From NCBI GenBank assembly GCA_903929765.1, contig CAIYVX010000105.1, forward strand, positions 57,334-121,333: 64,000 bases of DNA. The letters run 5' to 3'. Source of the DNA: an uncultured Planctomycetia bacterium. Its GTDB lineage: Bacteria; Planctomycetota; Phycisphaerae; FEN-1346; JAACEH01. Positions 21,799 through 60,999 of this stretch are shown one piece after another (position 1 is the stretch's first letter; each line of letters opens with the position of its first letter). The notes beneath the pieces are model-generated. The model had not been told where the DNA came from, did no database searches, and was given only the letters and a program-made list of their open reading frames with translations. The position numbers and the translations under genes are program-made.

Positions 21799-22045
21799 GA
21801 GGCTCCTATGCAGACTGGCTGGTCAACTATTTAACTTAGAGGCCTTGGACCTACCGGGCCTTCGCAGACCTGGCCTGGGTCAAACGCCTCGCCCACCACG
21901 GCGTGGCCCCAAGTCGGGCACACAGAAATCCTACCCGCCGGAAGATTCCGACCATCCTTATACCGAGGCGGCGGGGCGTTTTCAAGTCGTGAAGGTTTCC
22001 GAACAAGTTCAGATCTGCTTGTCCTGTTTGCGAGGACACTGTTGC

Positions 22046-22316
22046 CGGTGTCCGCGGCCGCCTTGACGTTCCGGCCGCCTCCTGGTATCACAATTATTCG
22101 TCGCGATCAGGCGCCGTAGCCAAATTGGCCAGGCAGCGGATTGCAAATCGCTTTCAGCCTTTTGTCGTAACTCCTTGTTTTGTCGGCAATTGCGCTCTAC
22201 CAAACAATTTACCGCAATTCTGGCAATACCGCTGGAATCGCGGTAATCCGCCCAAATCGCCCCTGCGGTTGTCGCGACAACCGCCCTTCAACACCGAGTG
22301 ACCGCCCACAAATACC
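22046..22316 (+). repeat. tRNA-Cys-derived dispersed repeat, copy 1 (promoter-like box + 5' tRNA-Cys half + conserved tail)
   Basis: TTGACG-N17-TATCAC, then GGCGCCGTAGCCAAATTGGCCAGGCAGCGGATTGCAAATC at 22110, then ~165 nt shared with copy 2. Confidence 0.9.
22265..22284. repeat. 20-bp perfect palindrome GCGGTTGTCGCGACAACCGC
   Basis: Read directly; inside repeat copy 1. Confidence 0.9.
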
Positions 22317-30813: not shown

Positions 30814-30884
30814 AGTGCCAGGGGCATCTTGCCTCTGGGTTTTGGCTGTTTCCACAAAACGTTAATGCACCCGGTGTCCGCGGC

Positions 30885-31156
30885 CGGTGTCCGAGGCCGC
30901 CTTGACGTTCCCGCCGCCTCCTGGTATCATAATCATTCGTCGCGTTCTGGCGCCGTAGCCAAATTGGCAAGGCAGCGGATTGCAAATCGCATTCTGCCTT
31001 TTGGCGTAACTCCTTGTATTATCGGTAATTGCGCTCTACCAAAAAACTTATGGCAATTCTGGCAATACCGCTGGAGTCGCTGTAATCCGCCCAAATCGCC
31101 CCTGTGGTTGTCGCGACAACCGCCATACAAAACCGAGTGACAGCCCACGAATACCC
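30885..31156 (+). repeat. tRNA-Cys-derived dispersed repeat, copy 2 (promoter-like box + 5' tRNA-Cys half + conserved tail)
   Basis: TTGACG-N17-TATCAT (30902-30930), then GGCGCCGTAGCCAAATTGGCAAGGCAGCGGATTGCAAATC (30949-30988), identical to the first 40 nt of the tRNA-Cys at 63525. Confidence 0.9.
30902..30930 (+). promoter_or_regulatory. Putative sigma70-type promoter TTGACG-N17-TATCAT, ~19 nt before the tRNA-like start
   Basis: Near-consensus boxes with 17-bp spacer; similar in copy 1 (22063-22091, TATCAC). Confidence 0.55.
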
Positions 31157-31314
31157 TTCAACGCACGCGAGCCAAGCTGGCCCGCCTCGGCCTGATTGAG
31201 TATGCCAGTCGCTGGAACCAACGCCACGGCGGTCATCAGGGATGGATGCCATCGAGTAGGATGTCCCTGGTTGTCGGCCAGAGAGACAACTCCGTGGGCT
31301 AAGGACTGTTCGCA

Positions 31315-32220
31315 TCACGGCGTTGGTTGCGGCGACCTTGCTTCCTGATGGGCTTTTACGCAATTCCGCCCGGCAGACTTGGCACAGTATAGCGCCGCGT
31401 CAGCCGCCCGAACCAGTTCCTGGACTGTCTCGCAGCCCACACTGCTAGCTACGCCGACGCTGATCGTCACGGTCATGCTCTGGCCATTAACATTCAGGGG
31501 CCGGTCGCAGATGCCCCGTCGCAGCCGGTCGGCGTACTCCGCGGCGGCTACAAGGTCCGTCTCCGGGGCCACGACGGCAAACTCCTCTCCGCCATAGCGG
31601 GCCAGAGTATCCGACTGACGGCAACTCTGAATCAGCAAACGAGCCACTTGGCGCAGCACTTCGTCCCCGGCCGGATGCCCGAACTGGTCGTTAACCGCCT
31701 TGAAGTGGTCGATGTCCGCCATGATCACTGACAGAACCCCGCCATGCCGCACCAGCCTGGTCCACTCCTGGCCAAGCCGTTCGTCCAAGGCCCGCCGATT
31801 GGACAACTCGGTCAGCGGATCAATCACCGCGAAGTCCCGCAGGAGATCCTGGAGATACTTGGTCCGTAAGGCCGTTCGGACACGAGCGCGCAACTCAAAG
31901 GCATCGAAAGGCTTGGTCACGAAGTCGACGGCCCCCAGATCCAGTCCCCGGACCTTATCCTCAGGGCCGCCGGAACCGGAAAGAAAGATGACCGGGATCA
32001 TGAACAAGGTGGGGCTCGCTTTAAGTCGGCGACAAACGTCAAAGCCCGACATGTCCGGCATATCGACGTCCAGAAGAATCAAATCCGGGGCCTCGCGGTC
32101 GGCTGCTTCCAGCCCTTCCTGGCCGTTGGTGGCGCACAGGATAGTGTGGCCTTCGCGACCCAGCCGGACCTTCGCCAAGGCCATGGCGTCGTAGCTATCG
32201 TCAATAATGAGTATCTTCAT
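31315..32220 (-). CDS. Response regulator with GGDEF diguanylate cyclase domain
   Basis: [34 protein letters not shown]. Confidence 0.93.
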
Positions 32221-35063
32221 GTCTTCCTCACCTCCTGAACCACAGCTTGGGTTCCCTGTCCCACCTGGATTCTCTGGCAAAGAAGCCTCAAGCGGCTCAA
32301 GGCCAGCACAGCTCCCTCGATGTCCTCCTGCTTCGCGTGCGCTTCCAGTTCACGAGCCGCATCAGTCAGACAGTTGTAGCCATAGCCTCCGCCGGCGCCC
32401 TTGAGCTGATGGGCCGCGCGCTCCAATATTTTCCATTGGCTGGCTGCTCCGGCCAAGCGCATCTCATCCAGGCGTTGCGGCAGTTGGCTGACGAACGCTG
32501 CGATGATTTCAACCATATCCGGGTCGTTTTGGAAGGCCGAGTGAATGGCCTCGTCTGAAGGCGGCGTGGGCACCGCCGCCGTGGCCGGCTCGTCCTGGGA
32601 TTGCGGCTCCGGATTACCAATCAGGCGGGCAATCGTTAACAGCAGGGCAAGGCGATTCACCGGCTTGGCCAAGTAGTCGTCACAGCCGGCGGCCAGGCAC
32701 TTGTCGCGGTCGCCGGTCATGGCGTGGGCCGTCAAGGCCACGATGGGGCCTTGGTAGCCCGACTGGCGGAGTTTCCTGGTGGACTCGTACCCGTCCATCT
32801 CCGGCATCTGCATATCCATGAGGATCACGTCATAAGGTGTCTCCGCCGACAAGGCCGCCAGAGCCTTTTCCACGGCCACCCGACCGTTGTCGGCCAGGTC
32901 CACCTCCGCCCCGGCCTTGTGGAGAATAATGGAAACGAGCTTCTGGTTGACAGAAGAGTCTTCGGCCAGCAAAACCCGTCCAAGAAGTCTTACCGTAGCG
33001 GGAGAGGCCAAGTGCGGCCGATTGGAGGACCGGACGGCCATCTCCGAGAGGTTGTTCAGCAGGCGCGCCGTTGTCGGCAATTGATCAAGCATTGTGAAAG
33101 TGAAGGTACTGCCCGCGTCGGGTTGGCTGACGACCTGAATATCGCCGCCCAGGGCCTCCGCCAGCTTCTTGCTGATGACCAGTCCCAGGCCGGTGCCGCC
33201 GTATTGGCGGGTCGTGGAGGAGTCGGCCTGGACAAAGGGCTGGAAAAGTCGGCCGATCTGCTCCGAGGTCATGCCGATGCCCGTGTCCTTCACCTCGAAG
33301 GCCAGTGCTGTCCGATCAGTCTGGTCAAGGGTGTAGCGCACAACGATTTCCACCTGGCCGTGGTCGGTGAACTTGACGGCGTTGCCGACGAGGTTGACGA
33401 GGATCTGGCGGATTCTCACCGGGTCGCTCAGGACCGTTTCCGGTATCGGAAATTCGTACCGTGCCTCAAGGGTCAAGCCCTTCTCAATGGCCTGCACGCG
33501 CATCAACGACATGGTTTCCTCGACCAGTTGCACCGGCGAACAGGGAACCCGCTCGACCTCCAGCTTGCCGGCGTCGATTTTCGAGAGGTCCAGGATGTCG
33601 TTGATAAGTCCCAGCAAATGCTGACCGTTGCGCTGGATAACTTGAATGTACTCTTTGTTCTCGACACGTGTGGGGCAAGACTTGTGATCGGGGCACGTGG
33701 TGCAGCATTCGATAGAGCTGCCCATAATCTCCGCGAAGCCCAGGATCGCCGTCATCGGCGTGCGAATCTCGTGGCTCATGTTGGCCAGAAACAGACTCTT
33801 AGCAACATTGGCCGCCTCGGCCTCTTCCTTGGCCCGCCGGAGATCCTCCTCCACCTGCTTGCGGCGAGTAATTCGCCACATACCCTCCATCATCAACGTC
33901 AATTGGGTCACATCGGCCTGGGTATAGTCCGTCTTTTTGTTGCCCACCCCGGCCACGGCGACGATCTTCGAGCCGTCGAAGACCGGAATGTTCATGTGGC
34001 GGGTCAACTTCACGTGTCCCTCGGGCGTTCCACGCTTGGCGGAGTTGGGTGCGGCGTAGTCATTGGTAATGACCGCTTCGCGGCGACGTATGGCTTCTCC
34101 CCACAATCCGGTGTCCTTGACCTGATAGACAATGGGTTTATGGATCATGGCACACTGGGCCATGGCCGCATTCGACCAGTAGTGCATGGTAAGGACCGAT
34201 TCGTCCTCGTTCAGGAAGGCAATGTAACCGATGGTGCTGCCGGTCAGTTCAATACTCGTCTCCATTGCGTATTTGGAAATTTTGGCGGCGGACAACTCCG
34301 TCTTCTGACTAAGTTCCAGCAGGGCCCGTTGCCGGGCTTCATCGCGTCGTAGCGATTCCTCGCTCAGTTGCAGTTCATCGGCCATGATTTTAAGTTTACC
34401 GGCTTTGCGACGCCACGCCGCCACGGCGGATCGCAGGACGAGATACCACATAGCGATGAAGAAGGCGACCGCCAGGCCTTGGCCGATCATATAGGACTTA
34501 AGGTGAAGATTCTGAGTTTCTGACTCGTTCTGTTGCCGGGTCTCCATCTTTTGAACGAGGGCGGTCATGCCGTCAGCGTAAATCTTCTTCTGACGCTCAT
34601 ACTCGGACCCCGTCAACAGCACCCAAGCCTCTTCTTTTCTGCCCACTAGAACAAGCTCAAAGGATCTTTTCTCTATCTTCACCAGGGCTACGTTGGCCTC
34701 GTCTGTGGCCGAGGCCATCTTAAGCTCGTCGCCGCTCGGCACCAGGGACGTGGCTTCCTGAATAATCCGGTCAAGTTCTGGCTCAAACTGTTGGTAGCGG
34801 GCGATCCAGACCTTATCCCCCGTGGCCGCAGCCATGCGGACCGACATGGTCAGCACTTCGTCCAAGTGCAGGATGCGCGCCGCCGCCTTGGCCAGAGTCG
34901 CCGTCTGAACTTCGGCGGCGAGGTGGCTTGAATAGATAGAGTGGCTGGCCCAGATCAGGCAGGTCGCCAGAACAACAGGCACAACGACGGCGGCTCCCAT
35001 CAGCAACGTCGGTAAACACGGATTCCGGTTTGAGGATCCCTCTGTACGGGACAATGGCCGCAT
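32217..35063 (-). CDS. Hybrid sensor histidine kinase (TM-GAF-HisKA-HATPase-REC-HPt)
   Basis: [63 protein letters not shown]. Confidence 0.94.
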
Positions 35064-35226
35064 CAGTTGGACCTCCTAAACGGGAACGGCTTCCAGCGCC
35101 AGATTACGGTGTGTCAGAATCAACTTGTCGGCATTGGTGCGGCACCACGCGATTGCGACAGCCGCAATTTCCGGGGCAAACGGGGTTCCAACATGGCCTT
35201 CTCCTTTGTCTATCGCGTCTTTTCTC

Positions 35227-36351
<1,125 letters not shown>

Positions 36352-36813
36352 TTAGACCTTAACCACCTCGGCCAGGAACAAAGCCACGTCCACCTGACCT
36401 GCATCGAGCAGGAGCCGCGCGGTGGCCGTCGGACCGACCGCCAGCAAACCGTTTTGGCCGTCAACAATCTTTGGTGAGCCCACGTCGAAGACGGCCTCCG
36501 CCCCGGCCAGTTGCGGCAGCAGATTGCCGCAAATCACGTTGAGCATTTCCTTGAAAGCGTCTTGCTGCACCTCTGCGGAGATCGGCCCGTCGTCACCAGT
36601 CATGTTGGCGGCCAGGATCGGCAGCAGGCCGGACGGAGCGGTCAACGTCACCCAGCCGGTGCGCGGGCCGTGAAACGAAACCGCGACCGTGATCGGCTCG
36701 ATCAGCGAGCCGGCGGCGCCGGCTTCGGCTTCATCGAGCGGAAACATGAAACCCAGCGTGCCAAACGATTCCACGGCCACCTGAGCCAGCCGGTCCGGCC
36801 ATTCAGCGTCCAT
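36352..36813 (-). CDS. CheX-like chemotaxis phosphatase-domain protein
   Basis: Size and operon context; ILAANMTGDD...AFKEMLNVICGNLLPQLAG. Confidence 0.65.
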   Translation of the reverse strand: MDAEWPDRLAQVAVESFGTLGFMFPLDEAEAGAAGSLIEPITVAVSFHGPRTGWVTLTAPSGLLPILAANMTGDDGPISAEVQQDAFKEMLNVICGNLLPQLAGAEAVFDVGSPKIVDGQNGLLAVGPTATARLLLDAGQVDVALFLAEVVKV

Positions 36814-37189
36814 TAGTCACCTCCGTCACGCTTTGGATAATTTGCTGGATCGTTTCCGGCGTGAATGGTTTGTGCACGAACTTCGCCCCGTGTTGCTGGA
36901 GCCGCTCGATGCGGGTTTCGCTGCCTTCGGTGGAAATGACCACGATGGGCAGGTCGGCGATGGCCGGCTTCTGGCGAATGCACTCAATGAGTTCCTCGCC
37001 GTTCATGACCGGCATGTTGATATCGACCAGGGCCAGGTCGAGCCAATGCTGGTCGAGCACGACCAGGGCTTCCTGACCATTAGCCGCCTGGTGTACCTCG
37101 CCCAGTTCGACGCCGCTCATTTGCAGGGTGCGGATGATCATCGACCGCATCACCGCGCTGTCGTCCACGACCAGAATGTTCAGAGCCAT
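36803..37189 (-). CDS. CheY-like single-domain response regulator
   Basis: [22 protein letters not shown]...DLALVDINMPVMNGEE...VHKPFTPE. Confidence 0.92.
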   Translation of the reverse strand: MALNILVVDDSAVMRSMIIRTLQMSGVELGEVHQAANGQEALVVLDQHWLDLALVDINMPVMNGEELIECIRQKPAIADLPIVVISTEGSETRIERLQQHGAKFVHKPFTPETIQQIIQSVTEVTNGR

Positions 37190-37198
37190 AATCTCACC

Positions 37199-37684
37199 TC
37201 ACAAAGCCTTGATCGCATTGTCACTACGGATGAGCATTTCGCCGGTGCCGATGGCCAGCGAAACGGTTCGCGGGCGGCTGCCGCCGACATCGGCGGCCTT
37301 GATCATCAGGCCGTTCTTCCAGAGCACCTTGCGGAAGACGACCATGTTGCGACTGCCGATGGCGAAAAAATCTGTGCCGCGATCCAGGGCGCCAATGGCC
37401 GCCCCGCCGGCGACTTTGACGACCATGTTCTGCTTGCGCCCGCCGGCCTTGAAAAACTCGGTCAGGAGACGCGGTACGCCGGTATCGACGAACATATAGG
37501 GATTGGCGGCGGCCTTCTCCGGGTTGATGGTCGACAGGGGCAGCATGGCGTGGAGCATAGCCCCGACGGCCGTGATCGGATCGTGGAGGACCACGCCCAG
37601 GCAACTGCCCAGCGAGTGCGTAATCAGCACGTCGCCCGACTCGGCGCTGATGCGCATTTCCGCCAGACCAACCGTATGTTTCAA
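37199..37684 (-). CDS. cheD: Chemoreceptor glutamine deamidase
   Basis: THSLGSCLGVVLHDPITAVGAMLHAMLP. Confidence 0.95.
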   Translation of the reverse strand: MKHTVGLAEMRISAESGDVLITHSLGSCLGVVLHDPITAVGAMLHAMLPLSTINPEKAAANPYMFVDTGVPRLLTEFFKAGGRKQNMVVKVAGGAAIGALDRGTDFFAIGSRNMVVFRKVLWKNGLMIKAADVGGSRPRTVSLAIGTGEMLIRSDNAIKAL

Positions 37685-37706
37685 ACCCTGTCTCCTGCGG
37701 TGCGAC

Positions 37707-38567
37707 TCAGTTTTGATAAATCGTCGGATACAGTTGCTTCATCTTGTGGCTCACGCCGGACAGGCTCTCGGAGTGGCCGATGATCAGGGCGCCGCCGGGG
37801 GCCAGCATCTGAGAAAAACGGTTGATGAGCTTGGTCTGGGTCGGCCGGTCGAAATAAATCATAACGTTGCGGCAGAAGATGACGTCGAACGGGCCGCGCA
37901 TCGGCCAGGCCTCCATCAGGTTCAGGTGGGCAAAGTGGACCAGCGAGCGCAGCCTGGCCCCGGCGCTGAAGACTTTCGGCGGGCCGCGGTCGATGAGCTC
38001 AAAATAGCGGTCGCGCAGGACCAGCGGCGTATCGCGGAAGCGGGATTCCTCGTAGACGCCCTCGCGGGCCTTGGCCAGGATGCGGGTGGAGATGTCGGTG
38101 GCCAGGATCTTCACGTCCCAGCGCTCAAGGTCGTGAATCGTTTCCAGGAGGACCATGGCGATGGAGTACGGCTCTTCGCCGCTGGAACACCCGGCGCTCC
38201 AGACCCGCAATTTGCGATTACCGTCCTTCTCGCGTTGGGCCATCAGCCGCGGCACAATATCGTCGCGCAAGTGGTCGAGGTGCTGCGGCTCACGGAAGAA
38301 GTAGGTGACATTGGTACTCAACGAATCGAGCATGTTGGCCAGTTCGGCCCCGTCGGTTTCCTGCTCGACGTAGCGCAGGTAGGCGGTGTAGCTGTCTAGC
38401 CCCAGCTTGCGCAGTCGTTTGGACAGCCGGGCCTTGACCAGTTCACGCTTGCCAACGTGCAGGTTGATGCCGCAGCGGTCCATGACCAGGCGGCTGATGC
38501 GTTCGAATTCGCCATCGGTCATTTCCAGCGGCGAGATGACCGGCGCGTTTAGCAGATCCTGGGCCAT
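37707..38567 (-). CDS. cheR: Chemotaxis protein methyltransferase
   Basis: VWSAGCSSGEEPYSIAMVL...FDVIFCRNVMIYFDRPTQTKLINRF. Confidence 0.95.
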   Translation of the reverse strand: MAQDLLNAPVISPLEMTDGEFERISRLVMDRCGINLHVGKRELVKARLSKRLRKLGLDSYTAYLRYVEQETDGAELANMLDSLSTNVTYFFREPQHLDHLRDDIVPRLMAQREKDGNRKLRVWSAGCSSGEEPYSIAMVLLETIHDLERWDVKILATDISTRILAKAREGVYEESRFRDTPLVLRDRYFELIDRGPPKVFSAGARLRSLVHFAHLNLMEAWPMRGPFDVIFCRNVMIYFDRPTQTKLINRFSQMLAPGGALIIGHSESLSGVSHKMKQLYPTIYQN

Positions 38568-38636
38568 GGTTTTCCTTCTCAGTTCCTTGTTCCGGAGACT
38601 ACCGGAGGCACGCAACCTCACGGCAGCCGGCGCAGC

Positions 38637-40124
38637 TCAGAAGCTGAAGACGAAGTCAAGCTCGAGTCGCTGGTAGGTCGGCGACTCGCGGTAGATGTCC
38701 TGCCGCGTGAGCTGGTCGTGGAAGTAGCTGGCCGAGGCCACCCAACCCTTGGCCACCTGATAGGCGACCGCGAACTTGGAGCCTTGGAAATCGGAGCCGC
38801 CGCCGGCCGAATCGGCGTCGCAGAAGGCCGCCATCACTGCGTCCGCGCCAACGCGACGATAGTTGTAACTGACCTTCCAGTCGCCCGGATTCTTCAGCAT
38901 GCCGTAGCTCACGCCGAGGAGCCAGGCGAAATCGCAGCTGGCGTCGTCACGCTGGCTGCCAGTCGCGGTGCCGATGACCGGGGCGCCGATGCGGGTGCGG
39001 GCCAGCGGGTTGTCGGCAAAGTCGCCGTAGAAGGATAACCGTTTGTGCAGCCAGGGATCCTCCGCCCCGATCTCGAAGAACGGGTTGATAATGCCGTAGT
39101 TGCAATCATAGACGCTGACGCCGGCGGGGGTGACCGCGACGGTGTTGCCCGTGGAGGACGGGAAGGTCCCGGCGGCCGTCGTGCCGATGGGAGTATTGGC
39201 CAGGTTGCTGTACTTATAGTAGCTCAAACCGGCGGTGGCATAGGCGCCCTTGGTCAGTTGCGGCAGGGCCAGCGTGGCGTAGCCCTGAGCGCCCCACAGG
39301 CTGGTGTCGGGCTGGCCAAAAGTACTTGTTTCATTCAGCCAGAACCCGCCCAGGTTGCCGAATAGCGTCAGGCCCTCGGCCACCGTCTTCTGATACTTCG
39401 CAGCGATGCCTTCAAAACGTATGGCGGCGCCCCAGATCAATTCGCTGTCGCCGACTTCGAGGAAGGGGTTGGGCAGGCGTCCCATGTAAACGTTCAGGCC
39501 CGGCACATACTTCGGATGATAGTTGGCATAAGCCAGGTCGATCCAGACCGGCTTCTTCTCGCTGCCCGGAAAGCCGTCGCCGCCGAGGGTCTGGTTCTGG
39601 TGGGTCGGATCGGCGCCGCCGTTATTTCCGCCGCCCGTGCCGAACTGAATGCCGACGTCCACTTCGTCGTTGACCTTTTCGAAGAAGCCCAGGCGGACGC
39701 GGATGCGCTGACGGGTCCGTTCCGGCCGAACGGCCGCTGCCGCCGCCGTTCCCACCCCACTCGCGTTGATCTGATCCTGCACCGACTGCTGCTGCTTGAT
39801 CCACTCCGTCCGAAACCGGAAGTCGCCGGTGATCTTCAGGTTGCTCACCCAGTCGGGCAACTTCTGATCCTTCAGTTCTTCCTTGATCAACTGGAGAATC
39901 TGTTGCCGCTGGTCTTCGGTGATTCCGGCCGGCGCCCCGGACTTCGGCTGCCCTTGCAACTGATTGATCTGCTCCTGCTGCTTGTAGACCAGGTCGCGGA
40001 GTTGCCGCACCTGTTCCGTCACGCTGTCCGTCGAAGCCGGCGTCTGAGCGGCCACCGTTCCAGCCACCGCCAGAAAGAGCCCGAGCATCGCTCCTGCAGA
40101 CCAACCCTTGATTTCAACTTTCAT
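38637..40124 (-). CDS. Putative outer-membrane porin
   Basis: Signal peptide (MKVEIKGWSAGAMLGLFLAVAGTVAAQ), coiled-coil KQQEQINQLQGQ, beta-barrel pattern with C-terminal LELDFVFSF. Confidence 0.85.
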   Translation of the reverse strand: MKVEIKGWSAGAMLGLFLAVAGTVAAQTPASTDSVTEQVRQLRDLVYKQQEQINQLQGQPKSGAPAGITEDQRQQILQLIKEELKDQKLPDWVSNLKITGDFRFRTEWIKQQQSVQDQINASGVGTAAAAAVRPERTRQRIRVRLGFFEKVNDEVDVGIQFGTGGGNNGGADPTHQNQTLGGDGFPGSEKKPVWIDLAYANYHPKYVPGLNVYMGRLPNPFLEVGDSELIWGAAIRFEGIAAKYQKTVAEGLTLFGNLGGFWLNETSTFGQPDTSLWGAQGYATLALPQLTKGAYATAGLSYYKYSNLANTPIGTTAAGTFPSSTGNTVAVTPAGVSVYDCNYGIINPFFEIGAEDPWLHKRLSFYGDFADNPLARTRIGAPVIGTATGSQRDDASCDFAWLLGVSYGMLKNPGDWKVSYNYRRVGADAVMAAFCDADSAGGGSDFQGSKFAVAYQVAKGWVASASYFHDQLTRQDIYRESPTYQRLELDFVFSF

Positions 40125-40234
40125 TCGGCGACTCCTTTTCGAAACCTGACGGTGACAATTCGGCAAGTCGTACAGCCTGGTCGACACCGACTGGCAACGG
40201 CACAGCGAACGGTCCGATCCCCGGACCAAGCGGA

Positions 40235-42145
40235 TCAGTTCCTGGCGCCGGCAACCACGGCCGTCTCGGCAGCGCGGCGCGTCGGAGCCGAAGAGCGGAC
40301 GGCGCGAGGGCCGGTGGTGCTGCCGGCGACCATGCGAGCGGCACGAGCATTGAAGATGCCGATCACGTCGCGAACGGACCGGCGTGTCGTCTGAATGAGC
40401 AGCACCAGCACGCCGAAGGCTACAAGCACCGCGGCGACGGAGCCAGCCATGAACCAAGTCCGCCAGGCGTCCCAGAGGGATGTTCGCGCGAGGACAAGTC
40501 CAACGCCCAGACAGGCCGCAGCCAGAAGGATGACCAGCACCGAGCCGCCGGCGGCCATCTTGGACCCAAAGGTCCAGCGCAGCGAAACTTCGCCGCGAGC
40601 GTCGGTCGAGCGAGCGAAGAACCAGGTGAGACCCAGCGCGAGAGCCAGCACGGCCAATCCGAAAAGCCAATAGAAGACGCGACCGGCGTCTTTGTGACCA
40701 AAGGCCGCGACGGTTGCGGCCGCGGTTTTCGTCGCGCCTTCGGCTTCGGCTTTTTCACTGTTCTGTTCGGCGGCGACCAGCAGCTTCGCTTCTTCGGGAT
40801 GAGCGCCGAGCCACTGGACCTGTCCGGTGGCGATGTCGTAAACCGCGCCAACCACTTTCAACTTGCCGTCCTTGATCTTTTCGCGGACCTCGGCGCTGCG
40901 CGACACCAGATCTTCAATGCTTTGCCAGACGTTGGCCTTAATCGCCTCGGCAATCAGTTCCTTGCCGGACAAAGAAGGATAAGCCTTGCGCGTTCTTTCC
41001 ACGCCCGGCTTGATGGGTGACACCAGCGGGGCGATGTTGCCGCCGACCTTGGCGTCCGTCACCACGGCCGTGACCGCGCCGCAACTGGTGTGGCCCAGGA
41101 CGACCAGCAGCGGGGTGTCCAGGTGCCCGACACCATATTCAATCGATCCCGCCTCGTCGGTGGCGCAGACGTTGCCGGCCACGCGGACGATGAAGATGTC
41201 GCCGACGCCGCAATCGAACAGACGTTCCGGCGGCTCACGCGAGTCGCTGCACCCGAGAATCGTGGCGATAGGGTGTTGGCCTTTGGCGGATGTTTCATTA
41301 AGCCGGGCCGCATCGGTGTGAGGATGGACGGACTTTCCGGCGGCGAAGCGGGCGTTACCCTCTTTGAGGCTGGCCAGGGCCTGATCGGCGGTTTTCTTCA
41401 CGGTCTCGGCTTCGGCGCGCGCGGCGACCGCCTTCTCCGCGGCCTCGATCAGTTTCTCTTCCTCGGGGTGAGCGCCGAGCCACTGGACCTGGCCGGTGGC
41501 GATATCGTAAATCGCCCCGACCACTTTCAGTTTGCCTTCCTTGATTTTTTCGCGGGCTTCGGGGCTGCGGGCCAAGAGATCTTCGATGCCTTGCCAGACG
41601 TTGGCCTTAATGGCTGCGGCGACAAATTCTTTTCCCGCCAGAGCAGGATATTCTTTACGTGTCCTCTCGACGGCGGGTTTAATGGGCGAGACCAGCGGGA
41701 GGATGTTGCCGCCCACCTCAGCGTTGGTGGCCACGGCGGTGACGGCGCCGCAACTGGTGTGGCCCAGAACTACGAGCAGCGGAGTGTTCAGGTGGCCGAT
41801 GCCGTACTCAATCGACCCCGCCTCATCGGTCGCCACGACGTTGCCGGCCACGCGGACGATGAAGATGTCGCCGACGCCGCAATCGAAGAGGCGTTCCGGC
41901 GGCACGCGTGAATCGCTGCACCCGAGGATCGTGGCGATGGGGTGTTGGCCCGTGGAGGTTTCGTGCCGCCGAACTGCGTCGGCATGAGGATGGACGGGCT
42001 TATCGGCGACGAACCTGGCGTTGCCCTCTTTGAGCGTCGCCAGGGCCTGGTCGGCGGTCACGGTGGACACCGGCTCGGCTCCCAGCACCATACCGACCAT
42101 CGTCAGGACATATAGTATTACACAGAGCCACACATAGCGTGCCAT
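40235..42145 (-). CDS. Tandem beta-carbonic anhydrase with signal peptide and C-terminal TM segments
   Basis: Two copies of CSDSR...GHTSCGAV zinc-ligand motifs; C-terminal hydrophobic helices VFYWLFGLAVLALALGLTWFF, VLVILLAAACLGVGLVLA, SVAAVLVAFGVLVLLI. Confidence 0.93.
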   Translation of the reverse strand: MARYVWLCVILYVLTMVGMVLGAEPVSTVTADQALATLKEGNARFVADKPVHPHADAVRRHETSTGQHPIATILGCSDSRVPPERLFDCGVGDIFIVRVAGNVVATDEAGSIEYGIGHLNTPLLVVLGHTSCGAVTAVATNAEVGGNILPLVSPIKPAVERTRKEYPALAGKEFVAAAIKANVWQGIEDLLARSPEAREKIKEGKLKVVGAIYDIATGQVQWLGAHPEEEKLIEAAEKAVAARAEAETVKKTADQALASLKEGNARFAAGKSVHPHTDAARLNETSAKGQHPIATILGCSDSREPPERLFDCGVGDIFIVRVAGNVCATDEAGSIEYGVGHLDTPLLVVLGHTSCGAVTAVVTDAKVGGNIAPLVSPIKPGVERTRKAYPSLSGKELIAEAIKANVWQSIEDLVSRSAEVREKIKDGKLKVVGAVYDIATGQVQWLGAHPEEAKLLVAAEQNSEKAEAEGATKTAAATVAAFGHKDAGRVFYWLFGLAVLALALGLTWFFARSTDARGEVSLRWTFGSKMAAGGSVLVILLAAACLGVGLVLARTSLWDAWRTWFMAGSVAAVLVAFGVLVLLIQTTRRSVRDVIGIFNARAARMVAGSTTGPRAVRSSAPTRRAAETAVVAGARN

Positions 42146-42215
42146 ATTAGTGGTTCCTGAAATAGTGCCTCGGAGCCCCTTCCAGCGTCAGGGGCTCCGA
42201 GGACGGTTTAGTTGA

Positions 42216-44318
42216 TTAGAACTGCGACAGCACGGCCTCTTCCTTCTCTTCCAGCGGGATGAGCGCCGCCGCATCGTCGGCCGACGTCATCACCTCCTTC
42301 GCGTGGGCCGTCGTGGACTTCCTGCCCGTGGAATGGCCGGCGCCGGCCGAATGATGAGTCGCGGAGGTCGTCGCGTGCGTGGCGACGGTCGCGCGACGCG
42401 TCGGGCTGTGAGTGGTCCGTTCCTGGTTGGCGCTACCGGCGCCGCCGACCAACATCATCAGTTCGTTGACCATGCTGTTGAGCTGCTCGGCCTGGGCGGA
42501 AAGCTCTTCGCTGGCCGAGGCCGACTCTTCGGCGTTGGCCGCGACTTGCTGCGTGACCTGATCCATCTGGCCGACCGCCGTGTTGACCTGGTCGATACCG
42601 CGCGTCTGCTCGTCGCTGGCGGCGGCGACTTCGGCCATGAGGTCGGTGACCTTCTTGATGCTGCCGCCGATCTCGTTGAGGGCGGTGGTCACTTCTTCTG
42701 TCACCTTGACGCCGTTGTCGGCGTTCTTCTTGGACTCGTCGATCAGGTTGGCGGTGTTCTTGGCGGCCTCAGCCGAGCGCTGGGCGAGGTTACGAACTTC
42801 CTCGGCGACGACGGCGAAGCCCTTGCCGGCCTCACCAGCCCGGGCGGCTTCGACGGCAGCATTGAGAGCCAGGAGGTTGGTCTGGAAGGCGATCTCGTCG
42901 ATGACCTTGATGATGCGGGCCGTCTCGTCGGAGGACTGCTTGATCTGGCCGATGGCGTCGCTCATGCGCTTCACCGACGCCGTGCCGCGATTAGAGGCTT
43001 CGAGCGTCTCGGTGGCCAGGCCGGCGGCCTGCTTGGCGTTGGCGGCGTTCTGCTTGGTCATGGAGGCCATTTCTTCGAGGCTGGAACTGGTTTCCTCAAG
43101 CGAGGAGGCCTGCTCCGAAGAGCCCTGGGCCAGCGACTGGCTGGAGGCGGAAACCTGTCCGGCGGCCGACGTGGTCTGCTCGGCGCCGTTGGTCAGGTTC
43201 TCGATGATGCGGTTGATCGGCTTGGTGATGGAGCGGGTGATGAAGATGGCCAGCAGGATGCCGATGACCACGCCGATGGAGAGGCCGATGATCATGACGG
43301 TCGAGGCCTGGCCGAGCGAGGAGGCAGCGTGCTCGGCCCCGGTGCTGACATCCTTTTCGCCCAACTCGGAGGTGGTCATGGCGGCGGCCAAGACGGCGTC
43401 GGCAACGGCGCCGCGCTTCTTGCCGAGGTCTTCGCGGGCCAGCCAGTTGGTCAGGAATTCCGTCATCCCGTCGTTATAAGCCTTGCCGGCGGCGCGGCAG
43501 GTTTCGATCCGCTTCAGATCGACGTCGCGCTTCGTAATGGCCTTGAGTTCATCCAGCTTCTTGTTGACCTCTTCAAATTTCTTCTGCGTTTCCTGGAACA
43601 ACTTCGGGTCGCGTTCGGTCTGGGACTTCCAGTTGCCGATGCGAATGGCATTGCCCAGGTCGACGATGTCGTTGGCCAGATTGATCTTGGTCTGGCGATC
43701 CTTGATCACCGCGGCGGCCTCGGTCAGAGTCACGGCTCCAGTCTCGGTCTTCGCTTTACCTTCTTCGGCGCCGGCCTTTGTGGTGTCCACCGCGGCCATC
43801 TTCTGCAACTCTTCGGTCAACAGTTTGTTCTGGTCATCCAGATATTCGTAGCAGACCTTCATGTAGTCTGCGGCTCCTTTGTTCATCGCTACCCGATCGG
43901 TGTTCAGTTTCTCGGTAATGGCCACCGTCTGGTTGACCAGATCCTCATATTCCAGGGCCTTCTTCTCGGCGGCTTCGGCGTTGCTCTTCAGGGCGGCCAG
44001 GTTCGGCGAGGTGTCGCCGAGGGCTTTGGCGTCTTTCAGGTATTTCTTGACCTCTTCGAGGTGTTTTCGACCGGCCGTGAGGAACTTCGGCTCTTCGGTG
44101 TAGGTGTAGCCGCGCATTTCATACATGGTATGCAGCGAGTAACGTTCGACGTTGTTGGCGACGCCGACTTCCGGCACGCTTTCCGTCTTCATGCTGTTGG
44201 CGATGGTGGTGACGCCCCACATGTTCCAGACGGCCAGGCCGCCCAGGGCCAGGGCAATGAGGATGAGTGCGGCAAAGCCGAGTCCGATTTTCGCTCCAAG
44301 CTTCAGCTTCTTAAACAT
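42216..44318 (-). CDS. Methyl-accepting chemotaxis protein
   Basis: TM-ligand domain-TM-HAMP; [48 protein letters not shown]. Confidence 0.96.
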
Positions 44319-44395
44319 GGCTACGTTCCTTTCGGTTAGAGCATCTTCAGTTATTGTTTCGGGTTATTTGACCCGTCCTGCACGTTTCAGCCACA

Positions 44396-44442
44396 GCCCC
44401 TCACCCGGCCCTCCGGGCCACCCTCTCCCGAGGGAGAGGGGT
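44396..44442. repeat. Palindromic intergenic repeat (GGCCC-TCC-GGGCC and CCCTCTCCC-GA-GGGAGAGGG)
   Basis: Read directly between cheW and mcp. Confidence 0.8.
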
Positions 44443-44452
44443 GCAGCATCAA

Positions 44453-44965
44453 CTAGGCCGTGGGGGCGGCAACGGCCAGATGGGCCAGCGCCGCCGTGTC
44501 GGTGTCGGTCAGCACCCGACCGATGTCCAGCAGCACCGTGACCTTGCCCTTCTGTTTGCCGATGCCCAGAATAAAGTCGGTGTCGACGCTGACGCCGAAG
44601 CTGGGCGAATCGCTGATGTCGGCCTCGGCGATGTTCTGCACTTCCGAAACCTTGTCCACCACGATCCCCATCTCGACCGAGTTCACGTCGACGACGATGA
44701 TGCAGGTCTCCTCGGTCTGTTCGACAGCGGCCATGGTGAACTTGGCCCGCAGATCGATGACCGGGATGACCTTGCCGCGCAGATTGATGACGCCCTTGAT
44801 GAAAGAGGGCGTGCGCGGCATGGGCGTAATCGGCACCATGCCGATGATTTCGCGGACCTTGAGGATTTCCAAACCATACTCCTGGTCGCCCAGGAAGAAG
44901 GTCAAGTACTTCCCTCCCCTGGCCGTGGCCCGATCCAGTACGGCGCCTGTCTGCATCTGCGACAT
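44453..44965 (-). CDS. cheW: Chemotaxis coupling protein
   Basis: YLTFFLGDQEYGLEILKVREIIGM...INLRGKVIPVIDLRAKF. Confidence 0.94.
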   Translation of the reverse strand: MSQMQTGAVLDRATARGGKYLTFFLGDQEYGLEILKVREIIGMVPITPMPRTPSFIKGVINLRGKVIPVIDLRAKFTMAAVEQTEETCIIVVDVNSVEMGIVVDKVSEVQNIAEADISDSPSFGVSVDTDFILGIGKQKGKVTVLLDIGRVLTDTDTAALAHLAVAAPTA

Positions 44966-45015
44966 GTTCTGTCTCCTTTTCTGACTTCGTGTTGCGGCCC
45001 GCCCCAAAGCGGAAC

Positions 45016-47685
45016 TCAGGCCGTCAGGCACGGCTGACGCACCGAGCGTTCAGCCGCCGTGACCGCGTCCCGGGCCAGGCTGACGAAGCCCGGCACGTCG
45101 ATGATCAGACCCACGCGACCATCGCCCATAATCGCACCTCCGGCGGTGCCTTTTATCTCGCCGATTCCTCCGGCAAGTGATTTGACAACTACCTGCTGCT
45201 GCCCCAGCAAGTCGTCGACCAGCAGAGCGCACTTCCGCCCCTCGTCGTCGACCACCAGGAGCAGCCCTTTGGTCGGATCGGTTTCTGCGTTGGTGATGCC
45301 GAAGGCCTGGTAAACACGAAAGAGCGGCATCAGTTGGTCGTGCAGCATGACCATTTCGCCGCGGCCAACGGCGACCGAGAGGTTGTCGTCGGACGGGCGG
45401 AAACTGGTGTGAATCGCGGCGGTGGGAATGATGTAGCGCTGCTCGCCGACGCGAATGACCATGCCGTCGATGATGGCCAGGGTAAGCGGCAGACGCATGG
45501 TGAAGGTGGAGCCGCGGCCGAACTCGGAGGCCAGGTCGATCTTTCCGCGCAGGGCCTCGACGCCGCGCTTGACCACGTCCATGCCCACGCCGCGGCCGGA
45601 GACCTCCGTCACTTTGTCGGCCGTTGAGAAGCCCGGTTTAAAGATCAGGTCAAAAATTTCGGCGTCGGTCAGACCCGCAGCCGACTCGATCAGCCCCTTG
45701 GCCACAGCCTTGGCGATAATCTTGTCGCGATTCAGCCCATGACCGTCGTCGCAGAGTTCGATGACCACCTTGCCGGAGGAGTGATAGGCCCGCAGGGTGA
45801 CGGTGCCGCAAGGATCCTTGCCGGCCTCGCGGCGGCGCTCGGGGCTTTCCAGGCCGTGGTCCAGGGCGTTGCGGACCATGTGGACGAGCGGGTCGTTGAT
45901 GACCTCAACCATGTTGCGGTCGATCTCGGTGTCCTCACCTTCGGGGACAAAGCGGACCGACTTGCCGTTTTTGCCCGCCAAGTCGCGGACCAGGCGCGCC
46001 ATTTTCTGAAAGGTCGACTTGAGCGGGACCATCCGCAGCGACATGCTCAGGTCCTGAAGTTCACGGGTGATTTTGCCGGCGTGATTGACGTTGCGGACCA
46101 ACCGCGTCCCGGTGGCCTTGATGACCATCTGATCCTGGGACACCATGGACTGGGCAATCACCAGTTCGCCGACCATATTGATTAAGGCGTCCAGACGATC
46201 AATGCGGACTTTGACTGATTGCGATTCCGACTCGCCGCCGGCCAAGCGGCTCTGGAGGCGAATAGCTCCGGCCACATCTTTCGCCGAGGCGGCCTTGGCT
46301 TTAACCAGGGCCTCGCCGAGGGGACCGGCGCCTTGATCCGCAGCGGCCACTTCCACGGCCACGCGGTCGGCCTTGCCCTCGGCCACCAGGATATCGCCCA
46401 GACGCAGGCCCGCGTCCGCGATGGACGCCTCGGCCGACACGCCCGCCGCCTCGGGATCGGCCAGCACCTGAAGCAAGTGAGGCAACGTCGGCGGATCGAC
46501 CGGCTTCTCGCCGCCCAGGCTGCCCTGGACCGACTGAACGAGGGTCCGGAGCATGTCGGTGGCCTCAAGAGCCAGATCGGAGTAGCCGCCGGTCAGTTGA
46601 ATTTTGCCGCTGCGGGCGCGGTCGAGCATGGTTTCGGCCAGGTGGGCGAGTTGCTGGAGTTGCCCGAAACCGAGGAAGGCCGAGGTGCCCTTAATGGTAT
46701 GAAAAGCCCGAAAGACGGCGTTGACAGCTTCGGCATTGGTCGGGTCGGTTTCCAGTTTCAGCAGCGACGCCTCGGCGTTCTCGATATGGTCGAGACACTC
46801 GGTCACGAAGTCGGCCAGCAGCGCCGGATCGGCCGCCTGAAGCGAATCGGCCAGTTGCTGGACGGTTTGTGACGCAGGCGTCTGGGCAGGACGACTGGTC
46901 GCCTCGGCGGATTGAAGATTATTCGTAGCGAGTGGCGACTGGTCCGAGGAAGCCGCAGCGCCGGCTGAAGCCGTCGGAGAGGCAGGATCCGAAGGGCATC
47001 CGGTGGAGGCCGCCGTGGGGTTATCGGCGGCCTCCTGGATGCCATCTACTAATGTTCCCAACATTTCCATCAGTTTATCTGTTGACTCACCTGGCTCAAC
47101 GGCCATGATCTTGACGAGAACCTGCAAGGCGGAAAAGCCCATCTCACTGACCGACTGCGGCCTGGCGCATTGGGCTAACCATTCGGCCAGGCGGTCCTTG
47201 ATCTGCACCAGCCCTGCGGTATCGCCGGGCATTAAGGTTGAAATCGCGATGGCGATGTCATCAAGTGTGACCGGCGAGGCCGACTGGCTCCCGGTCGCCG
47301 CAGTGTTTCCGCCGACCCCGAGATCGGCCAGCCCTGAATCGCGTTTCAAGTTAGCGAGGACTTCCGCTTCGGGCGGCGTCGGGGCGTCGGCCTGGTTGAG
47401 CGTCGCGGCGAGCCACTGGGAAATCTGCTGCAAGGTCGTCAAGGCTGCGGCAGCATCCGGCACTTCGGCGAGGACGATACGCTGGGTAGCCTGCCCGGCG
47501 GCCTTGGCGTAAGAGGCCAGAGGCGTCGTCTCGGGCCGACCGGCCAGAGCCTGCTCCAAAGAAGCAAAGAGGTCGGCCAGGGCAACCAGCCCCTGAAGGT
47601 CGGCCCGTTCGGTGGACTGGCACCGGCTGGAGATCTCTTCCAGCAGTGAACGCATCTCGCCACTCGTGCAGTTCAACCAGTTCAT
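45016..47685 (-). CDS. cheA: Chemotaxis histidine kinase
   Basis: HPt AFHTIKGTSAFLGF; LVRDLAGKNGKSVRFVPEGEDTEIDRNMVEVINDPLVHMVRNALDHG; GRGVGMDVVKRGVEALRG; CheW-like C-terminus. Confidence 0.96.
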   Translation of the reverse strand: MNWLNCTSGEMRSLLEEISSRCQSTERADLQGLVALADLFASLEQALAGRPETTPLASYAKAAGQATQRIVLAEVPDAAAALTTLQQISQWLAATLNQADAPTPPEAEVLANLKRDSGLADLGVGGNTAATGSQSASPVTLDDIAIAISTLMPGDTAGLVQIKDRLAEWLAQCARPQSVSEMGFSALQVLVKIMAVEPGESTDKLMEMLGTLVDGIQEAADNPTAASTGCPSDPASPTASAGAAASSDQSPLATNNLQSAEATSRPAQTPASQTVQQLADSLQAADPALLADFVTECLDHIENAEASLLKLETDPTNAEAVNAVFRAFHTIKGTSAFLGFGQLQQLAHLAETMLDRARSGKIQLTGGYSDLALEATDMLRTLVQSVQGSLGGEKPVDPPTLPHLLQVLADPEAAGVSAEASIADAGLRLGDILVAEGKADRVAVEVAAADQGAGPLGEALVKAKAASAKDVAGAIRLQSRLAGGESESQSVKVRIDRLDALINMVGELVIAQSMVSQDQMVIKATGTRLVRNVNHAGKITRELQDLSMSLRMVPLKSTFQKMARLVRDLAGKNGKSVRFVPEGEDTEIDRNMVEVINDPLVHMVRNALDHGLESPERRREAGKDPCGTVTLRAYHSSGKVVIELCDDGHGLNRDKIIAKAVAKGLIESAAGLTDAEIFDLIFKPGFSTADKVTEVSGRGVGMDVVKRGVEALRGKIDLASEFGRGSTFTMRLPLTLAIIDGMVIRVGEQRYIIPTAAIHTSFRPSDDNLSVAVGRGEMVMLHDQLMPLFRVYQAFGITNAETDPTKGLLLVVDDEGRKCALLVDDLLGQQQVVVKSLAGGIGEIKGTAGGAIMGDGRVGLIIDVPGFVSLARDAVTAAERSVRQPCLTA

Positions 47686-48081
47686 CTTCGTCTCCGGTGC
47701 AACTTCGCACGGTTCTCAGCAGCCGGTATCGGTCGCCTTCAGCCCGCATATCGGCGGACAGGTAGAGACGGTGTATGAGGTATATGCCCTACAGGAAAAG
47801 CCGGTCCGGGCCGCGCCGGCGGCCGCCGGCCGGCCCCTGACCATTCTCAGTATTGGAATAGCAACAACTGACGATATTTGGCTTCGACCGGAGGTAATTC
47901 TGCCGCAACAGGGCGCATGAATTTAGGGAAAGACCCTACGAAAAAAGGGCCGGAAATCTGACTTCCTGGTTTCAGGGGAATGCCCTATCGCCGGATTTCC
48001 CGAGGCATCCGATATATACAGAACTCCAGCGCCCAGTGGCGCCGTCGAGTGACTTATTGCCCAGACCAAAGGAAAACCGGC

Positions 48082-49017
48082 ATGAACGATTCGCTGTTCG
48101 ATAGATTAGCCGGCTGCGGAAACCTCCCCACCATTCCGGGCGTGGCCCTGGAGGTTCTGACTCTGGCCCGCAGCCGTCAGAGCAGCATTGATAAGATTTC
48201 GGCGATTGTGGCCCGCGATCCGGCCTTGTCGACACGCATGCTGCGCGTCGCCAATTCGTCCTTGTTCGGAACGCCGATCAAGGCGACCACCGTGAAGCAG
48301 GCCCTGGTACGCATGGGCCTGCGGAGCGCCCAGTCCGTGGCCCTGAGCTTCAGCGTGAATACGAAACTCACTAAGGCCAGCCCCGACGGGTTCGATCACC
48401 TGGCCTTCTGGCGTTCGAGCCTGGTGACCGCCGTGGCCGCCAAGATGATCGAGGAGCGAACTCGCAACCGCCGAGCGGACGAAGCATTTACCGCCGGGCT
48501 GCTTCAGGACATCGGGGTCCTGGCGCTCAACAATTGCCTGAAAGCGGAATATGCCCCGGCGCTGGAAGCCTATCGCCGAGGCGAACGCGAAATCGCCGAG
48601 GTCGAGACCGAACTGCTGGGCGCCAACCACATGGAAGCGGCCGGCTACCTTCTGGGCATGTGGAATGTGCCCGACGGCATCCTGGGACCGATCTCCTGCC
48701 ACCATGACCCGGCCAGCCTGAAGAGCAAAGAGCCCGACGACTCCCGCCTGGCCCGTGTCCTCCAGACCGCCGACGCCTTCATGCGGATTATTTGTTATGG
48801 CGCTAACCAGACCAACACGAAGCGGTGCGTCGAAATGTGCAAGCATCACCTGGCCTGGGCACCGACCCGGATCGTGCCCTTCGTCCAGGACATGGCCCCG
48901 CTGGTTCTGGAACTGGGCAAGTTGCTTTCCATCGAGGTGTCGCCGGAAATGCTGGCCCAGATGGGCAAGGGCGAGGTGGCGGAATTTTCCGTGGCGGCGA
49001 TTCCGGCAACCGTGTAA
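48082..49017 (+). CDS. HDOD-domain signal transduction protein
   Basis: LPTIPGVALEVLTLARSRQSSIDKISAIVARDPALSTRMLRVANSSLFG. Confidence 0.92.
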   Translation: MNDSLFDRLAGCGNLPTIPGVALEVLTLARSRQSSIDKISAIVARDPALSTRMLRVANSSLFGTPIKATTVKQALVRMGLRSAQSVALSFSVNTKLTKASPDGFDHLAFWRSSLVTAVAAKMIEERTRNRRADEAFTAGLLQDIGVLALNNCLKAEYAPALEAYRRGEREIAEVETELLGANHMEAAGYLLGMWNVPDGILGPISCHHDPASLKSKEPDDSRLARVLQTADAFMRIICYGANQTNTKRCVEMCKHHLAWAPTRIVPFVQDMAPLVLELGKLLSIEVSPEMLAQMGKGEVAEFSVAAIPATV

Positions 49018-49090
49018 CGACACAGAAAACAGGGACACTCGCGAATGACGGGCCGAAGGCCCAGGGCAAATTAAGAAGGAAAGGCCGGAC

Positions 49091-49570
49091 ATGGTCACAA
49101 TGAAAGTCGAGTACATCAACGCGTTTATCGGCGCCGCTCAGAACGTCTTCAGCTCGATGCTCAACACCGAGGTCACGCTGGGCCGGGTCACGGTGAACAC
49201 CAGCCACGTCACCGCCCACGACATCTCAGGCATCATCGGCCTGAGCGGAGACGCCGTGGGCTGCGTCGTGGTGAGTTTTCCTATGGACACCGCCCTGGCC
49301 GCCTACAAGGCTTTCGCCGGCGAGGAGATTGACCCGATGGACCCCAACTTTCTCGATGCCATCGGCGAGTTGACCAACATGATTGCGGGCAACGCCAAGG
49401 CCGAGATCGTCGGCATGTCGATCAGCATCGGACTGCCGACGGTGATCATGGGCAAACAGCATTGTGTCAACGCGCCGCAGAACGTGCCATTCATCTGTAT
49501 CCCGTGTCACTGCAAACTGGGTAATTTTTCAATCGAAGTCGCGTTCCGCTCTGAAACCGGGAACAATTAA
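49091..49570 (+). CDS. CheX-family chemotaxis phosphatase
   Basis: VEYINAFIGAAQNVFSSML...DISGIIGLSGDAVGCVVVSFP...IGELTNMIAGNAKAE. Confidence 0.88.
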   Translation: MVTMKVEYINAFIGAAQNVFSSMLNTEVTLGRVTVNTSHVTAHDISGIIGLSGDAVGCVVVSFPMDTALAAYKAFAGEEIDPMDPNFLDAIGELTNMIAGNAKAEIVGMSISIGLPTVIMGKQHCVNAPQNVPFICIPCHCKLGNFSIEVAFRSETGNN

Positions 49571-49591
49571 GGTTAATCCAAGGAGGCCATC

Positions 49592-49987
49592 GTGAAAGTT
49601 CTTCTCGTGGACGACTCGAAAGTCATGCGGCAAATTCAGCGGCGCAGCCTGACGACCATCGGCTTCTCCGATATCGCCGAGGCCGGCGACGGCATCGAGG
49701 CCCTCCAGCAGATGAACGGCCAGCCGAAGCCGGACATCGTCATCCTGGATTGGAACATGCCGCGGCTCGACGGCTTGGGCACGCTGCGCAAAATCCGGGA
49801 GACCGATACCAAAACCGTGGTCGTCATGTGCACCACCGAGTCCGAAAAGGTGCGGGTCATCGAGGCGGTCAAGGCCGGGGTCAACAACTACATCGTCAAA
49901 CCGTTCACCCCCACGGTCCTCCAGGATAAGCTGGCGGAAACTTTGCAGCGGGTGGGGCTGGCCATGCCCGTGCCGCAGACGGTTTAG
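49592..49987 (+). CDS. CheY-like response regulator
   Basis: MKVLLVDDSKVMRQIQRRSL...IVILDWNMPRLDGLG...IVKPFTP. Confidence 0.94.
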   Translation: MKVLLVDDSKVMRQIQRRSLTTIGFSDIAEAGDGIEALQQMNGQPKPDIVILDWNMPRLDGLGTLRKIRETDTKTVVVMCTTESEKVRVIEAVKAGVNNYIVKPFTPTVLQDKLAETLQRVGLAMPVPQTV

Positions 49988-49997
49988 GAGGCGTATC

Positions 49998-51404: not shown

Positions 51405-51412
51405 TAATACTT

Positions 51413-51653: not shown

Positions 51654-51659
51654 TTCGAC

Positions 51660-52307: not shown

Positions 52308-52498
52308 GATAGTACCTCCGTTCCTTTGAACTACCCCACCCCCACGTCGGACAGCCACGGAACGAGACGCCCCAACTGCGGGAGTCCCAACGGACGAATA
52401 AGCCGCCCGATTCGGCGGCGATCTTTCTCGATAAACCCTCCACAACCGGCCTCAGGTGAAAACAGCGAGCAGACACACGGGGATCTCCAACGATCCCA

Positions 52499-60980: not shown

Positions 60981-60999
60981 TGGGCCTGGGCAACAGCGC

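What the first reader, a model, noticed from the sequence alone, without database searches (positions are those of the whole stretch)
30885..31156. Promoter-bearing repeat built on the 5' half of tRNA-Cys
Seen: nt 30949-30988 are identical to the first 40 nt of the intact tRNA-Cys at 63525-63564, including the GCA anticodon, and diverge within the 3' strand of the anticodon stem. The remaining ~165 nt are not tRNA but are ~90% identical (by eye, ~20 differences in ~208 nt) to the copy at 22110-22316. A TTGACG-N17-TATCAT box sits ~19 nt upstream of the tRNA-like 5' end and is shared with the other copy, but it is not upstream of the real tRNA-Cys. Inference: a tRNA-derived mobile or regulatory element (SINE-like, or a transcribed chimeric small RNA), or the scar of repeated integration at a tRNA anticodon-loop att site. 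An AAGGCAG...CTGCCTT pairing could form an alternative stem in copy 2.
Basis: partly seen in the sequence, partly recalled or inferred. Interest (0 to 1): 0.78.

Follow-up and report, generated by a model that had tools for sequence, protein, structure and literature searches.

The report
Island attachment scar at tRNA-Cys
The repeat is the leftover end of a mobile DNA island that long ago inserted itself into the anticodon loop of the cysteine tRNA gene and pushed aside the gene's promoter-bearing front half; the same island family, with its integrase gene, does this to at least ten different tRNA genes across Planctomycetota.

Summary
In detail: B (30883-31155) and A (22044-22316) are 91% identical, and B carries the first 40 nt of the only intact tRNA-Cys (63525). 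They are not a SINE or a conserved RNA. They are attL ends of a tyrosine-integrase island family that inserts into the anticodon loop, keeps a fresh tRNA 5' half in attP and leaves the native promoter plus old 5' half at the far end. About 24 homologous left ends in Planctomycetota each follow a tRNA 5' half cut at position ~38 (at least ten anticodons). Three contigs of other genomes hold complete islands (16.1, 28.4, 43.9 kb): displaced 5' half, cargo, divergent integrase, restored tRNA; two more pairs support it. The window keeps the matching right end: an integrase remnant (62996-63372, -, E~1e-25), arm site GGTTGTCGT (63458) and CGTAAGTCCTTGT (63498) just before tRNA-Cys. In phage-like contigs attP is contiguous as predicted, and arm motifs co-vary between its two sides. 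Such islands are known (Islander: 159 of 3919 have a 5' fragment). Less usual are the integrase family, which lacks the box I arginine, its asymmetric attP, and the A/B duplication, which straddles the junction.

The parts
22044..22316 (+). Left-end (attL) copy A, 273 nt
   Evidence: 91% ungapped to copy B; model R1 hit E 3e-30
30883..31155 (+). Left-end (attL) copy B, 273 nt (the finding)
   Evidence: R1 hit E 8e-30
30883..30948 (+). Sequence upstream of the displaced 5' half with promoter-like TTGACG (30902-30907) N17 TATCAT (30925-30930); read as the native tRNA-Cys promoter (inference)
30949..30986 (+). Displaced 5' half of tRNA-Cys (positions 1-38), copy B; identity to the intact gene runs to 30988
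22110..22147 (+). Displaced 5' half of tRNA-Cys, copy A (1 mismatch)
30987..31105 (+). Island left-end body with CGTAACTCCTTGT (31005) and ~10-nt-period CCGC repeats
   Evidence: alignments; motif scan
31106..31121 (.). Perfect palindrome GGTTGTCGCGACAACC: inverted pair of arm-type sites, copy B
   Evidence: invariant in 8 left ends; co-varies with the right-end arm motif in relatives
22267..22282 (.). The same palindrome in copy A
31156..62995 (.). Presumed island interior (signalling, chemotaxis, porin, flagellin genes); status as cargo not proven
   Evidence: orientation and size fit; GC 61.7% against 64.2% in the left flank; gene content
62996..63372 (-). Integrase remnant (N-terminal ~115 aa; in-frame stop and frameshift; catalytic part missing)
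   Evidence: tblastn 55% identity, E ~1e-25, to the intact island integrases of G227 and G076
63458..63466 (+). Right-end arm-type site GGTTGTCGT, exact; a degenerate copy at 63436
   Evidence: consensus GGTTGTCGTCAAGGTTGTCGT at the homologous place in intact right ends
63498..63510 (+). CGTAAGTCCTTGT motif; with up to 2 mismatches it occurs in the window only here and in copies A and B
63525..63600 (+). Restored intact tRNA-Cys(GCA), the only one found in the genome (attR)
   Evidence: ARAGORN, Rfam, single copy

Best explanation
The repeat is the left attachment end (attL) of a decayed integrative island. Its tyrosine integrase recombined attP with the tRNA-Cys gene in the anticodon loop. 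attP carries, in order: the divergent integrase gene, two direct arm sites (GGTTGTCGT), a CGTAAGTCCTT motif, a full tRNA 5' half as core, the left-end body, and an inverted pair of the same arm site (GGTTGTCGCGACAACC). Integration put the island's own 5' half onto the chromosomal 3' half (intact gene at 63525) and left the original promoter and 5' half at the far end (30949, with copy A at 22110). Later most of the integrase gene was lost and the attL segment was duplicated. Shown: homologous left ends on many tRNAs, complete islands in other genomes, the integrase remnant and motifs at the window's right end, contiguous attP in related phage-like contigs, co-varying arm motifs. Inferred: protein binding to the arm sites, the exact crossover, that the 31-63 kb interval is cargo, and the order of events for A and B.
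For: (1) Homologues of the non-tRNA part in other Planctomycetota follow the 5' halves of different tRNAs cut at position ~38: Met CAT, Ser TGA/GCT, Sec TCA, Thr TGT/CGT, Arg CCT/TCT, Lys TTT, Cys GCA. (2) Complete islands whose left half equals the right tRNA's 5' part: G076 Thr-TGT 28,439 bp, G227 Arg-CCT 43,864 bp, G082 Met-CAT 16,065 bp; also G111 Arg-TCT ~68 kb on one contig and a variant, G382 Phe-GAA ~13.9 kb. (3) Family integrases start 58-410 nt from an intact tRNA, divergently, in 22 of 26 loci with enough flank, usually with GGTTGTCGTCAAGGTTGTCGT between them. (4) The window has an integrase remnant 153 nt from tRNA-Cys, an exact arm site, and CGTAAGTCCTTGT found only at its three ends. 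(5) Genomes with left ends are enriched for the integrase: 20/25 against 57/373, p=1.4e-11. (6) Contiguous attP with a lone 5' half in IMG/VR contigs L186, L187 and L188; the arm motif changes together on both sides, e.g. GGTAGTAAAGGTGGTAGTAG with GGTAGTACGTACTACC.
Against: No empty site was found: G001's tRNA-Cys lies in unrelated surroundings. No catalytic integrase domain remains on the contig. The right-end arm pair in the window is half degraded. Interior genes include a chemotaxis cluster and flagellin, which look more like core functions than cargo. The predicted left palindromes for two distant clades (GGTTGTAGCTACAACC in G357 and G257) were not found in those draft genomes. A simple attL would exist once, not twice.
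Confidence: 0.92

Rival explanations
1. A conserved chimeric small RNA: the promoter drives a transcript of the tRNA 5' half plus a structured tail that ends in the hairpin.
For: Promoter-like boxes kept in both copies; the tail is conserved across genomes and ends in a perfect hairpin.
Against: Only 1 of 16 consensus pairs has a compensatory change. The hairpin motif recurs at the other island end as direct repeats and co-varies with them. The upstream region differs between genomes. No U-run follows the hairpin.
Confidence: 0.05
2. A SINE-like tRNA-derived mobile element that spreads as a promoter plus tRNA half plus tail unit.
For: Two 91% copies that include the promoter.
Against: Only two copies in the genome; homologues carry different tRNA halves, and in three complete islands the half is identical to the restored tRNA at the other end.
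Confidence: 0.01
3. A split or interrupted tRNA gene (intron or trans-spliced half) still used by the cell.
For: The break lies at the classical intron position, 37/38.
Against: An intact tRNA-Cys exists; no 3' half follows the palindrome; complete islands restore an intact gene.
Confidence: 0.01
4. The family reading is right, but A and B belong to an older insertion unrelated to the remnant at 63 kb, so 31-63 kb is ordinary chromosome brought between them by rearrangement.
For: Chemotaxis and flagellin content; two left ends for one right end.
Against: Orientation, tRNA identity and distance fit one island; GC drops near 18-22 kb and stays low to the end; the genome has a single tRNA-Cys.
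Confidence: 0.3

Closest known systems
tDNA genomic islands as defined by Islander (PMC4383910), 5'-fragment class
   Same: A tyrosine integrase splits a tRNA gene; the island restores it; the displaced fragment marks the far end; anticodon-centred sites are common (2083 of 3919 islands); tandems occur.
   Different: 5' fragments are a small minority there (159 against 3760 with 3' fragments); here 5' displacement is the rule in one integrase clade that uses at least ten anticodons. The window copy is decayed and its attL is duplicated.
Arm-binding tyrosine integrases of phages and ICEs (lambda Int type)
   Same: attP has a core plus flanking arm sites on both sides; N-terminal region ahead of the core-binding and catalytic parts.
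   Different: Arm sites are a direct pair on the integrase side and a palindromic pair on the other; the box I arginine is absent from all aligned family members.
CTnDOT-type integrases (PMC8138268)
   Same: Box I arginine missing; in CTnDOT another arginine substitutes.
   Different: No relationship to CTnDOT was tested; whether an arginine substitutes here is untested.

Membership tests
tDNA genomic island (Islander criteria) | Intact tRNA plus a same-orientation fragment of it, fragment on the correct side | tested here: met
   5' fragment upstream of the intact tRNA-Cys, same strand
tDNA genomic island (Islander criteria) | Fragment reaches the end of the tRNA gene (not internal) | tested here: met
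   Identity starts at position 1 and runs to ~38-40
tDNA genomic island (Islander criteria) | Length 2-200 kb | tested here: met
   32,576 bp (B) or 41,415 bp (A)
tDNA genomic island (Islander criteria) | Integrase gene inside the interval | tested here: inconclusive
   Only an N-terminal remnant in the window; intact in G076, G227, G082
Tyrosine recombinase (family integrases, not the window remnant) | Catalytic K, R-II, H and Y | tested here: met
   K258, R350, H372, Y381 invariant in A3; Pfam PF00589 above cut-off
Tyrosine recombinase (family integrases, not the window remnant) | Box I arginine | tested here: not met
   NGGFGNTDC-type sequence instead of GLRxxEL in all aligned members; CTnDOT is a precedent
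SINE-like tRNA-derived element | Many dispersed copies sharing one tRNA head | tested here: not met
   2 copies; different tRNA heads elsewhere
Structured small RNA | Compensatory covariation | tested here: not met
   1 of 16 pairs, 8 sequences only
Structured small RNA | Transcript | not testable with these tools
   No RNA data

The most novel reading that the evidence does not exclude
An integrase clade that lacks the usual box I arginine specialises in taking over the promoter-bearing half of tRNA genes, and the stranded native tRNA promoter is then used: it transcribes a tRNA-half chimera or drives the island's left side. In this genome the promoter-half-arm unit was duplicated and kept because it does something.
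Probability: 0.1. Interest if true: 0.7.

Novelty: new member of a known kind. Interest (0 to 1): 0.42.

Why it matters
It turns an odd tRNA-like repeat into a precise marker for islands in Planctomycetota: the palindrome after a tRNA 5' half, and the GGTTGTCGTCAAGGTTGTCGT pair before an intact tRNA, mark both ends without needing the integrase gene. It shows a clade that consistently replaces the promoter half of its target genes, a configuration that is rare in the published island survey, and an integrase family whose catalytic centre departs from the textbook set. Both are directly testable.

Tried and rejected
SINE and small-RNA readings (above). Rfam: only the intact tRNA in the window. 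Phage and plasmid collections: no match for the DNA or the integrase. Group I intron or split tRNA: considered because the break is at 37/38; no 3' half follows. Integron attC and transposon-end readings of the palindrome: considered from memory, no supporting feature. Promoter similarity between 30894-30927 and 63141-63174: the latter lies inside the integrase remnant and codes for its GELTVK stretch, so it is chance. Empty-site test with G001 and G002: no shared synteny; G002's tRNA-Cys is itself preceded by a right-end-like CGTAAGTCTTTGT. Palindrome prediction for G357, G257, G309, G347: not found, and the G309 hit sits in unrelated sequence without a tRNA half, so motif co-variation rests on G382 and the viral contigs. 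Tandem integration as the cause of A and B: rejected because no right-end signature (integrase remnant) lies upstream of B. Structure prediction of the integrase was not attempted because the closest intact copies came from genome loci outside the tool's stated sources.

Full report
OBSERVATION. Copy B (30883-31155) and copy A (22044-22316) match over 273 nt without gaps at 91%. Nucleotides 30949-30988 equal the first 40 nt of the tRNA-Cys at 63525. The own genome, a 3.83 Mb draft in 116 contigs, has no other copy and only this one intact tRNA-Cys. The promoter-like TTGACG-N17-TATCAT is at 30902-30930; copy A has TATCAC.

THE TAIL BELONGS TO A FAMILY. Searching 100 relatives with the repeat brought in homologues of the non-tRNA part in other genera of the same order and class. 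The first seven full-length ones sit directly behind the 5' half of a tRNA, and the tRNAs differ: Met, Ser, selenocysteine. Homology ends just after the palindrome GGTTGTCGCGACAACC. A sequence-only model found left ends in 25 of 398 genomes of the class, and a pattern scan of GTDB gave Planctomycetota plus two chance hits inside unrelated sequence. About 24 left ends with a recognisable tRNA 5' half were seen, with at least ten anticodons, all broken at the end of the anticodon loop. A few hits have no tRNA half (for example G003 contig C296), presumably truncated. In G004 and G007 the half is tRNA-Sec in the same gene neighbourhood in both genera, close to an AIR-synthase-family (SelD-like) gene in G004, so the halves sit at native tRNA loci.

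THE OTHER END. In the single-contig genome G227 and the seven-contig genome G076, a tyrosine integrase gene lies just upstream of an intact tRNA of the same kind as the displaced half, reading away from it. Left half and right tRNA are identical from position 1 to ~38 and unrelated before and after: G076 Thr-TGT, 28,439 bp; G227 Arg-CCT, 43,864 bp; G082 Met-CAT, 16,065 bp. G111 (Arg-TCT, ~68 kb on one contig) and G382 (Phe-GAA, ~13.9 kb, variant arm motif) give the same pairing. The G076 and G227 integrases (419 and 414 aa) are 72% identical. Cargo of G076 and G227 includes RND and CusB-type efflux systems, in G076 also a metal P-type ATPase. G076's left end is preceded by a second integrase remnant, a tandem.

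THE WINDOW'S RIGHT END. tblastn of those integrases finds an N-terminal remnant at 62996-63372 on the minus strand (55% identity, E ~1e-25) with an in-frame stop and a frameshift, 153 nt from tRNA-Cys, the spacing seen in intact right ends (121-153 nt in most of the close clade). Between remnant and tRNA lie an exact GGTTGTCGT (63458) and CGTAAGTCCTTGT (63498).

CLASS-WIDE TEST. The integrase occurs in 77 of 398 genomes. Of 26 loci with enough flank, 22 have an intact tRNA in the predicted place and strand, mostly with GGTTGTCGTCAAGGTTGTCGT before it. Left ends and integrase co-occur by genome: 20/25 against 57/373, p=1.4e-11.

CONTIGUOUS attP AND CO-VARYING ARMS. A profile search of IMG/VR gave 18 relatives at 26-40% identity. 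In L186, L187 and L188 the predicted attP is uninterrupted: integrase start, direct arm pair, a lone tRNA 5' half (Lys or Arg), body, second arm site. The motif changes together on both sides: L187 GGTAGTAAAGGTGGTAGTAG with palindrome GGTAGTACGTACTACC; L188 GGGAGTAAT/GGGGAGTAGTG with GGAGTAGTCTACTCC; G382 GGTGTC with GGTGTCAGAGACACC; L186 has direct GGTGTGCC repeats on both sides. Direct repeats cannot form the hairpin, so a protein-binding DNA site is the better reading; binding itself is inferred. L188 encodes a tail tape-measure protein, so some relatives are phages. Other viral relatives carry a tRNA 3' half instead (L183, L194, L196, L197), so the choice of half varies within the wider family.

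A AND B. The duplicated 273 nt include 66 nt upstream of the tRNA and at least 31 nt of island interior beyond the palindrome, with similar divergence throughout. A copy that straddles the junction points to duplication after one integration. Its mechanism is unexplained.

WHAT REMAINS UNCERTAIN. The 31-63 kb interval fits an island in orientation, size and lower GC (61.7% against 64.2%), but holds chemotaxis, signalling and flagellin genes, no intact integrase, and no empty site was found. I give about two in three that A or B and 63 kb bound one original island.

INTEGRASE. All aligned family members lack the box I arginine (NGGFGNTDC for GLRxxEL) while K, R-II, H and Y are invariant. CTnDOT integrase is a known precedent in which another arginine substitutes (PMC8138268). 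NCBIfam has no close model.

COMPARISON. The kind is known: Islander lists 3919 tDNA islands, 159 with a 5' fragment and 2083 at the anticodon (PMC4383910). I found no paper on this planctomycete family, but the library holds open-access papers only and six searches are not exhaustive.

Noticed in passing
L128-L161 integrases (A3); L181-L194 viral relatives: The integrase family lacks the box I catalytic arginine (NGGFGNTDC-type); invariant R256 and R263 are candidates to replace it.
   Followed up: partly
L183, L194, L196, L197 (IMG/VR): Relatives of the integrase whose attP carries a tRNA 3' half instead of a 5' half; in L196/L197 the palindrome GGTTGTAGCTACAACC lies on the integrase side.
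   Followed up: partly
L104:1626-2050 (G076): A second integrase N-terminal remnant and arm site directly upstream of the displaced tRNA-Thr half: tandem islands.
   Followed up: partly
G000 contigs C93:25963-28384 and C47:32242-35107: Three adjacent tyrosine recombinase genes in each place, reminiscent of recombinase-in-trio elements.
   Followed up: no
window 63498, 31005, 22166: CGTAAGTCCTTGT-like motif conserved on both sides of the core in the island family; not arm or core site by position, role unknown.
   Followed up: partly
L058 (G146:C275): Left end behind an Arg-like tRNA 5' half whose anticodon reads GCT.
   Followed up: no
window 35227-62611: Dense signalling cluster: CheA, CheW, CheB, CheR, two CheX, MCP, several hybrid kinases, FapA, flagellin.
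   Followed up: partly
L121 (G002:C124, tRNA-Cys): tRNA-Cys preceded by CGTAAGTCTTTGT, a possible further right-end scar in a genome without a detected left end.
   Followed up: no
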